Position numbers and translations under genes: made by a program
Shown: positions 14,056 through 39,430 of the stretch, piece after piece
Layout of the letters: every line of letters begins with the position of its first letter
How positions within the stretch are numbered: position 1 is the first letter of the stretch
Assembly (NCBI GenBank): GCA_905221615.1
Contig: CAJNDT010001010.1
Span: 37,255 to 101,254 of the forward strand
Direction of reading: 5' to 3'
Source of the DNA: Symbiodinium sp. CCMP2592
Lineage: Eukaryota; Sar; Dinophyceae; Suessiales; Symbiodiniaceae
Length of the DNA stretch: 64,000 nucleotides
Notes under the pieces: model-generated
The model's database searches: none
The model's input: the letters and a program-made list of their open reading frames with translations, nothing else
Told to the model about the DNA's origin: nothing

Positions 14056-14910
14056 GTGGAGTTGGCCTTGGGTTGGTGACCTTGGTCTCCCTCGCAATGA
14101 TCTTCGCCGCGGTGGCTACGTCTCTGATCCATGGCGCTCTGGCATGGATTGCAATTCAGCGCCGGATTGTTGGGTTTGGGGTATGTCAGGGAACCCTTCG
14201 CTCGGCTTGTCTGAGTGCGAGCACCGAAACTCGAAATAACCTTTAGCCCCTGGAAAGACAAGACTGTCTTGCCGATGAGATCTTGCAGAAACACTGCCTA
14301 TGGTCCGAATGCTCATTAGTAGTCTGGCTCCCCCACGAATTTTTGCCCTTTATCTTTTGGGGTTCCTTTGTTGAAGCTAAATAGCCGGAAAAAGACTCCC
14401 CTTATTCTTAAGGGGCTACTGGAGAACCTAGTATGACAATGATTCCCCGCAAGCCCTATTCCCATTATGAAGGCATCAAGGCCCTTCTATCACATGTTGC
14501 AAGGCTTACGCCGCAAGCTGAAGGCTCGGGCCCATGTCACATTAAGACATGGCCTGAGTCTCGACTGACTACTGAACCCGAAAGTTTAAACCCTAAACCC
14601 TAAACCCTAAGAAAGAAATACAGTGAAGGCCGTTGACCCTAAAATCCAACGCATCCTCGCACGGCTGATGACCAGCTCTGCGAGCCGAAAGCCCTCTGAA
14701 CTTCGACACATGAAGAGATCCTACGTCCTCAGATTCACTTTCCCACAGCCGGGACCTTAAAAGCCTTAAACCCAAAATCCTAAAGCCGCAAAGCCCTAAA
14801 CCCCAAATGTGTCACTAAATCCTGTACCCTACGCGCTTCTCCACCAAGCTCAAAGAACCCACCGAGGGATCGCACCGGACTGCGGCGGGTCGGGCTCTGT
14901 GGAGAACAAG
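14056..14910 (+). CDS. CLC gene, first supported exons (helix C/D region and selectivity loop)
   Basis: Exon 14056-about 14173 starts after GGAAG|GT. It encodes a hydrophobic helix (LVTLVSLAMIFAAVATSLIH) ending in WIAIQRR, as expected just before the AP-x-x-GSG loop. Its 3' end is uncertain: GT donors occur at 14069-14082 by frame, and 14173 gives the required phase. Exon 14856-14910 encodes APDCGGSGSVENK and ends AAG|GC (GC donor). In the family this loop is GSGIPE. Here the Ser that contacts chloride (GSG) is kept but IPE reads SVE. The intron between them (about 14174-14855) contains a CCCTAAA run and a coding-like 45-codon frame at 14624-14760 that does not fit CLC. Confidence 0.65.

Positions 14911-39430: not shown

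What the first reader, a model, noticed from the sequence alone, without database searches (positions are those of the whole stretch)
14056..39430. A CLC transporter gene hidden across about 25 kb as tiny exons
No exon exceeds 210 bp and none appears as a notable open frame. Yet CLC motifs (GSG loop, GREGP, FEEV, GGLTGRLFG, GAAAML) occur in the right order on one strand and the splice phases join. The protein is more than 95% intron at gene level. Standard gene finders trained on GT-AG introns would miss it.
Basis: partly seen in the sequence, partly recalled or inferred. Interest (0 to 1): 0.85.

Follow-up and report, generated by a model that had tools for sequence, protein, structure and literature searches.

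The report
Real CLC transporter gene, tiny exons
The window holds a real chloride-transporter gene of a coral-symbiont-type alga (a Symbiodinium-like dinoflagellate), cut into about thirty tiny exons over some 53,000 bases; this is how these algae commonly build genes, only more extreme, and the protein family may carry an unusual change in its inner gate.

Summary
Splice-aware alignment to an Effrenium voratum CLC gives 30 colinear, in-frame exons over 2994-45316 (score 1562; 11 controls 369-422). Three more C-terminal exons start at 50430, 55206 and 56370. Core exons are 11-109 bp, introns average 1.4 kb, mostly GC-AG, and intron fills 96%. The 512 joined residues match Pfam Voltage_CLC at 163.9 bits, cut-off 24.8. 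Four exons match 78 of 79 residues, with three shared junctions, of a Symbiodinium microadriaticum 'CLC-B' record whose other 884 residues show no CLC similarity: that public model looks like a chimera. Intron-rich genes with GC/GT/GA donors are already documented for Symbiodinium, so the architecture is an extreme case of a known kind. Ser_cen, Glu_ex and Glu_in are kept, predicting a Cl-/H+ exchanger. The inner-gate tyrosine column is Asp in 85 of 85 rows, inferred from alignment and a predicted fold. No transcript of the locus was available. A nested HNH-like ORF and foldback repeats sit in the introns.

The parts
2994..3062 (+). exon, TVFSIEFLVHSKFDMMQLAVNR; first securely placed exon
   Evidence: exact in 19 of 31 homolog alignments; single-piece tblastn E 0.001
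14056..14133 (+). exon, GVGLGLVTLVSLAMIFAAVATSLIH
   Evidence: exact in 27 of 31
14867..14910 (+). exon with GSG loop (Ser_cen), IAPDCGGSGSVENK
   Evidence: exact in 31 of 31
15371..15413 (+). exon, SWLNGFNMSAQFTK
   Evidence: exact in 30 of 31
15875..15951 (+). exon with GREGP (Glu_ex)
   Evidence: exact in 29 of 31; 3' junction shared with P0003
16114..16182 (+). exon, VTMGSNMAFLLCRAVAETRSYAK
   Evidence: start in 30, end in 10 of 31; both junctions as in P0003
17019..17049 (+). exon, EWVDLQGGSP
   Evidence: start in 15, end in 8 of 31; both junctions as in P0003
17296..18624 (+). nested intronless ORF of 442 aa with two HNH/endonuclease VII-like stretches, inside intron 17050-19740 (not part of the CLC protein)
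   Evidence: PHROG hits to 2.7e-28; 192 homologs at E<=1e-5
19741..19804 (+). exon, ALADERFFARAARVACVVGG
   Evidence: exact in 29 of 31
20478..20528 (+). exon, CGMAMIFDSPLGGILY
   Evidence: exact in 30 of 31
21224..21272 (+). exon, FEEVTSVSWPVELTFK (Glu_in)
   Evidence: exact in 31 of 31
21866..21895 (+). exon, AVVGCTICSS
   Evidence: exact in 29 of 31
22779..22820 (+). exon, VSYALLRVCQSSIR
   Evidence: exact in 29 of 31
23661..23683 (+). exon, EFVIFEM; 3' end uncertain
   Evidence: start in 30 of 31, end here in 12, at 23677 in 19
25015..25123 (+). exon, the longest (109 bp)
   Evidence: exact in 26 of 31
25772..25814 (+). exon, VMDWRKRIHSGPLL; 3' end uncertain
   Evidence: start in 16, end in 6 of 31
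26900..26961 (+). exon, KCQPWAKMADTVAYAALCAA; 5' end uncertain
   Evidence: end in 25, start in 13 of 31
30298..30361 (+). exon, VVALTSILGSCQALPKLTSEL; 3' end uncertain
   Evidence: start in 21, end in 4 of 31
31625..31679 (+). exon, YVQYQCPEGEYNPTASL
   Evidence: exact in 26 of 31
32335..32379 (+). exon, LTTAEGAVKRLFNR; 3' end uncertain
   Evidence: start in 31, end in 3 of 31
32912..32947 (+). tentative exon, NHGAFGPSPAD
   Evidence: exact in 2 of 31, one of them P0001
34498..34572 (+). exon, LLSYTTLNIGFAGLPVPSGNFTGT
   Evidence: exact in 24 of 31
36288..36319 (+). exon, LIGGLTGRLF; 3' end uncertain
   Evidence: start in 30, end in 13 of 31
36425..36435 (+). tentative 11-bp exon
   Evidence: exact in 1 of 31; also in the P0002 alignment
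37799..37853 (+). exon, ALLLPEASFTSSGIYAMV; 5' end uncertain
   Evidence: end in 31, start here in 10 of 31, start at 37817 in 20
38769..38789 (+). 21-bp exon, GAAAMLC
   Evidence: exact in 31 of 31
41331..41374 (+). exon, FKHMTLAVVVFICQ
   Evidence: exact in 31 of 31
42277..42318 (+). exon, ASNNIELVPVLMLA
   Evidence: exact in 29 of 31
42564..42620 (+). exon, VTVSLFVHKIIGSPIAFDE; its D lies in the Tyr_cen column
   Evidence: exact in 30 of 31
43365..43418 (+). exon, AQILRKKMHYLSAEPCKP
   Evidence: exact in 24 of 31
45257..45316 (+). exon, VRRLAARQLVDDLPEQSRLP; 3' end uncertain
   Evidence: start in 28, end in 6 of 31
50430..50485 (+). C-terminal (CBS-region) exon, CLGLAPRTRLDAAVR; 3' end uncertain
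   Evidence: start in 26, end in 4 of 31
55206..55274 (+). C-terminal exon, DAPADAFYVLFAKAQLRAACVLT
   Evidence: exact in 21, end in 30 of 31
56370..56417 (+). C-terminal exon, ASGDYYGVISRAGTAS; 3' end uncertain
   Evidence: start in 29, end in 11 of 31

Best explanation
The + strand carries one nuclear gene of a Symbiodinium-like dinoflagellate for a membrane protein of the CLC chloride channel/transporter family. Thirty core exons (two of them tentative) and three C-terminal ones, 11-109 bp each, spread over at least 2994-56417. They are joined by spliceosomal introns with mostly GC-AG, also GT-AG and GA-AG, ends (shown by homology and splice signals, not by transcript). The product has the CLC transmembrane domain and a C-terminal region matching the CBS part of its relatives. 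Because it keeps the outer gating glutamate and the internal proton glutamate, it most likely works as a 2 Cl-/1 H+ exchanger (inferred), with an inner gate changed by an Asp in place of the usual tyrosine (inferred). The introns are inflated by repeats, foldback elements and a nested HNH-endonuclease-like ORF.
Against: No transcript or long read of this locus was available. The start codon, the exon(s) before 2994, the exons in 45317-50429 and 50486-55205 and the stop codon are unresolved. Fourteen of the 33 listed exons are recovered exactly by fewer than 19 of 31 homologs, mostly because one end is uncertain; two (32912-32947, 36425-36435) rest on 2 and 1. The aligner imposes AG and penalises stops, so 'no stop, no frameshift' is partly built in. 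A recent pseudogene cannot be fully excluded.
Confidence: 0.95

Rival explanations
1. It is a recently silenced CLC pseudogene that keeps its exons but is no longer expressed.
For: No transcript of the locus was available; the exon before 2994 could not be found convincingly; symbiotic Symbiodiniaceae are reported to have more pseudogenization than Effrenium (abstract and passages).
Against: No in-frame stop or frameshift over 1,535 joined bases (partly built into the aligner); Ser_cen, Glu_ex and Glu_in intact; 78 of 79 residues equal to the congener in four exons.
Confidence: 0.05
2. The motifs are chance matches picked out of a large search space of short open frames.
For: Single exons score near noise: the bare frame scan gave Voltage_CLC only E 0.092.
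Against: 1562 versus 369-422 in controls; 15 colinear plus-strand pieces at E<=0.1 against none on the minus strand, and junctions shared with P0003.
Confidence: 0.005
3. The stretch holds two or more separate, partly duplicated CLC gene fragments rather than one gene.
For: The 11-kb first intron holds a 1.9-kb direct repeat, and unresolved gaps remain at 45317-50429 and 50486-55205.
Against: The placed parts of the protein follow each other in order with matching phases.
Confidence: 0.04

Closest known systems
Effrenium voratum CLC (P0001) and relatives P0004 (Durusdinium trenchii), P0006 (unnamed source), P0007 (symbB record)
   Same: Nearest rows in the tree; 51-67% identity over 98-100% of the joined product; Asp in the Tyr_cen column
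   Different: P0001 seems to lose the CBS reading near its C-terminus; the exon structures of these loci were not available
Symbiodinium microadriaticum / KB8 'CLC-B' record (P0003)
   Same: 78 of 79 residues and three splice junctions identical
   Different: Only these four exons match; residues 1-884 have no hit to the window at E<=0.01, only one marginal hit (E 0.94) to 103 CLC proteins, and no other Pfam domain
Plant CLC-a and animal CLC-7 / CLC-6 exchangers
   Same: Sequence match over the transmembrane domain; same fold for the relative P0001; Glu_ex and Glu_in kept
   Different: 21-25% identity in the fold comparison with these three; GSGSVENK and GNFTG where they have G[SP]GIP and other helix-N letters; Asp for the central Tyr
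Symbiodinium gene architecture as published (PMC5177918, table and passages)
   Same: Many small exons; GC/GT/GA donors
   Different: Here exons average 51 bp (published mean 109.5), introns 1,406 bp (504.7), gene at least 53 kb (12.9 kb)

Membership tests
CLC family (Pfam PF00654 Voltage_CLC) | Profile match above the curated cut-off | tested here: met
   163.9 bits against 24.8, profile positions 2-344 of 346
CLC family (Pfam PF00654 Voltage_CLC) | Ser_cen loop GSG | tested here: met
   GSG in exon 14867-14910; S in 83 of 85 rows, gap in 2
CLC family (Pfam PF00654 Voltage_CLC) | Gating glutamate G[KR]EGP | tested here: met
   E in 85 of 85 rows
CLC family (Pfam PF00654 Voltage_CLC) | Central tyrosine (Y445 in CLC-ec1, Y578 in CLC-1); a conserved gating residue rather than what defines the family | tested here: inconclusive
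   The aligned column holds Asp in 85 of 85 rows and Tyr in outgroups P0101 and P0102, but P0103 has its Tyr one column earlier. Structural end offsets put D516 of P0001 on 445 and 578 (residue numbers), if no gap falls there; coordinates could not be inspected
CLC family (Pfam PF00654 Voltage_CLC) | CLC fold | tested here: met
CLC Cl-/H+ exchangers | Internal proton glutamate (E203 in CLC-ec1) | tested here: met
   Second E of FEEV; E in 83, D in 2 of 85 rows
CLC Cl-/H+ exchangers | Measured coupled Cl-/H+ transport | not testable with these tools
   Needs a flux assay
Eukaryotic CLC with C-terminal CBS pair | Two CBS domains | tested here: inconclusive
   Three exons match the C-terminal region of relatives, some of which carry Pfam CBS, but the region is incomplete and was not scanned as a whole
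Dinoflagellate spliceosomal introns | GC/GT/GA donors with AG acceptor, G after AG | tested here: met
   21 GC, 6 GT, 2 GA of 29 donors and G after AG in 29 of 30 exons in the model; 24 of 32 and 27 of 32 when any donor is allowed and no G bonus is given (AG itself was imposed)
Retroposed dinoflagellate gene | Relict spliced leader in the genomic copy | tested here: not met
   0 matches at up to 3 mismatches in the window (query recalled), as expected for an intron-rich gene

The most novel reading that the evidence does not exclude
The gene belongs to a dinoflagellate-wide CLC clade in which the inner-gate tyrosine, the partner of Ser_cen, has been replaced by an invariant aspartate while Glu_ex and Glu_in are kept. 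This would give an exchanger whose inner gate carries its own titratable acid, with altered Cl-/H+ coupling or pH dependence.
Probability: 0.4. Interest if true: 0.65.

Novelty: new variant of a known kind. Interest (0 to 1): 0.45.

Why it matters
A full transporter gene can occupy most of a 64-kb dinoflagellate window with no single open frame that reveals it, and the public model of a near-identical locus holds only four of its exons; transporters of coral symbionts may therefore be under-annotated. If the Asp at the inner gate is real, this large natural group would be a test case for how the inner gate takes part in Cl-/H+ coupling; as far as I recall, that residue has been studied mainly by mutation.

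Tried and rejected
Rfam (0 matches at gathering score) and the tRNA scan (0) gave nothing. Plain frames with stops as X against Pfam gave Voltage_CLC only below threshold in one frame (E 0.092) and no CLC hit in the other two. Chance was rejected; of the three control assemblies scanned, one gave a sub-threshold GntP permease hit, E 0.16, the others nothing.

Rows dropped from the gene model: the P0001 alignment had 34 segments; I dropped four (540-561, 2196-2237, 2863-2913, 50984-50998) as unsupported. Exons before 2994 and in 45317-50429 and 50486-55205 were sought with several relatives; the answers disagree and are not claimed. The distant P0002 added spurious N-terminal exons. A low-complexity acidic tail candidate around 60133-60201 in four relatives is not claimed.

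Retroposed origin: no spliced-leader relict. A mobile element around the nested ORF: 14-nt inverted arms at 17087 and 19170; 5 window matches against 0.41 expected at up to 2 mismatches, suggestive only. Short or AT-rich palindromes (around 13845, 26758, 33686, 59548, 62257) were not counted as foldbacks.

The own-genome search did not complete, so other copies in the source genome could not be sought. Literature: 16 papers hold 'dinoflagellate', 'chloride channel' and 'CLC', 12 listed, none on dinoflagellate CLC genes by title; 1 paper for Symbiodiniaceae, on sponge viruses; 2 for HNH endonuclease, on polinton-like viruses. Listings only, so absence from print is not claimed. The introner paper cited by a review is not held.

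Full report
What was checked. The finding names CLC motifs scattered over 14056-39430. A six-frame scan shows them on the + strand in the stated order. Plain frames scanned against Pfam show CLC only below threshold (E 0.092; no CLC hit), so the exons are indeed nearly invisible one at a time.

Finding relatives. A padded query of a few candidate exons found 3 proteins at E<=10 among 577 candidates: an Effrenium voratum CLC (P0001), an MMETSP transcriptome CLC (P0002) and a Symbiodinium microadriaticum 'CLC-B' record (P0003). tblastn of these against the window showed the match running past the stated range at both ends (the output was cut).

Gene model. I wrote a splice-aware protein-to-DNA aligner (donors GT, GC, GA; acceptor AG; three phases). 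With the first 560 residues of P0001 it gives a chain of 34 segments, score 1562; nine dinucleotide shuffles, the reverse strand and the reversed query give 369-422. After dropping four unsupported segments, the core model has 30 exons from 2994 to 45316, 11-109 bp, mean 51.2, 1,535 bases in all, without a stop in one frame. Its 29 introns are 105-10,993 bp, mean 1,406, median 840; intron fraction 96.4%. Aligning 31 homologs (of 104 held from the CLC searches) and recounting: of 33 listed exons, 17 are recovered with both ends identical by at least 24 of 31, and 19 by at least 19. In most others one end is firm and the other varies. Two (32912-32947, 36425-36435) rest on 2 and 1 alignments. 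The C-terminal exons start at 50430 (26 of 31), 55206 (22) and 56370 (29). The gene so spans at least 2994-56417, 53,424 bp for 1,708 bp of listed exon. The start, the stop and the exons in two gaps remain open.

Splice signals. In the model, donors are 21 GC, 6 GT and 2 GA of 29, and 29 of 30 exons begin with G after AG. Since the aligner favours these, I reran it with any donor and no bonus: 18 GC, 4 GT, 2 GA and 8 others of 32, and G after AG in 27 of 32, AG still being imposed. GC at third positions is 69.7% in the coding frame against 56.8% and 45.8% in the other two; exons are 57.5% GC, introns 47.5%.

Independent junction check. P0003 carries 78 of the 79 residues encoded by exons 15875-15951, 16114-16182, 17019-17049 and 19741-19804, with the same three junctions. 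So the window is from S. microadriaticum or a very close relative (inference). Residues 1-884 of that record have no hit to the window at E<=0.01, only one marginal hit (E 0.94) to 103 CLC proteins, and Pfam finds only Voltage_CLC at 866-925. The public model looks like a chimera holding four of the exons.

How it works. In 85 rows (84 homologs of at least 600 aa plus the window protein; P0101-P0103, the outgroup of the tree, set aside; 29 of the 85 were in the tree), Ser_cen is S in 83 with 2 gaps, Glu_ex is E in 85, Glu_in is E in 83 and D in 2. The helix-N phenylalanine (F357 of CLC-ec1; equivalence recalled) is F in 86 of 87 homologs and Y in one. These are exchanger-type residues. A published exchange cycle uses Ser_cen and Tyr_cen as the intracellular gate (passages of PMC7274781). 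In the Tyr_cen column all 85 rows have Asp; outgroups P0101 and P0102 have Tyr there; P0103 has Asp there and its Tyr one residue before. In P0001 this is D516. The printed ends of the structural alignments pair model 525 with 454 in most of the CLC-ec1 rows, and 527 and 529 with 589 and 591 of CLC-1; if no gap falls between, D516 sits on Y445 and Y578. Y578 as TyrC of CLC-1 was read in PMC6483157 (passages). Against this, the residue before the Asp is F, H, Y or W in 85 of 87 homologs, so a shift by one is the rival reading. For CLC-2 chains the same arithmetic gives 553, while the one CLC-2 paper looked at calls the residue Y559 in its own numbering (passages), which I could not reconcile. 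The substitution stays inferred.

Known context. The S. microadriaticum genome paper (table and passages) gives means of 21.8 exons per gene, 109.5-bp exons, 504.7-bp introns, 12.9-kb genes and donors GC/GT/GA, and says the pipeline was modified for them. A review (passages) cites a 26-kb intron in another dinoflagellate and introner-driven intron gain. Effrenium genes average 20 kb with introns 92% of a gene (passages). So this gene is an extreme example, with exons half and introns nearly three times the published means, not a new architecture.

Verdict.

Noticed in passing
17296-18624 (+): Intronless 442-aa ORF nested in a CLC intron, with two stretches similar to phage HNH / endonuclease VII families (best E 2.7e-28; no Pfam hit at E<=1). 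192 homologs at E<=1e-5; among the 120 listed, named ones are from Symbiodinium, Polarella, Durusdinium and Prorocentrum: a multicopy dinoflagellate family.
   Followed up: partly
17087-17100 and 19170-19183: 14-nt inverted pair GTTTAGTGGCAGCG / GTTTAGTGGCACCG flanking that ORF; possible element ends, not shown to be so.
   Followed up: partly
24843-24951, 35100-35216, 37577-37688, 43742-43844, 45656-45776, 54073-54160, 54228-54340, 56014-56116, 58510-58618, 63736-63844: Ten dispersed foldback repeats of 88-121 bp, more than one family, none overlapping a listed CLC exon. Of seven dispersed repeats folded, six form long hairpins (z -8.9 to -12.5) and one, 37002-37115, does not (z -1.3). MITE-like.
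   Followed up: partly
3842-5726 and 6170-8045: 1.9-kb direct repeat, 92% identical, inside the 11-kb first intron.
   Followed up: no
51248-51957 and 52498-53213: 0.7-kb inverted repeat, 94% identical, between C-terminal CLC exons.
   Followed up: no
557-2047 (+): Uninterrupted 496-aa ankyrin-repeat ORF upstream of the first placed CLC exon on the same strand.
   Followed up: partly
60286-61179 (+): SPFH / Band 7 ORF downstream on the same strand (E 1.9e-21).
   Followed up: partly
8577-9105, 49066-49239, 62809-62982 and others: Telomere-like arrays (CCCTAAA / TTTAGGG type) at many places in the window, and a 286-bp tandem array at 9106-10869.
   Followed up: no
P0003 (protein record, residues 1-884): The public S. 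microadriaticum 'CLC-B' model looks like a chimera: four CLC exons behind 884 residues without CLC similarity.
   Followed up: yes
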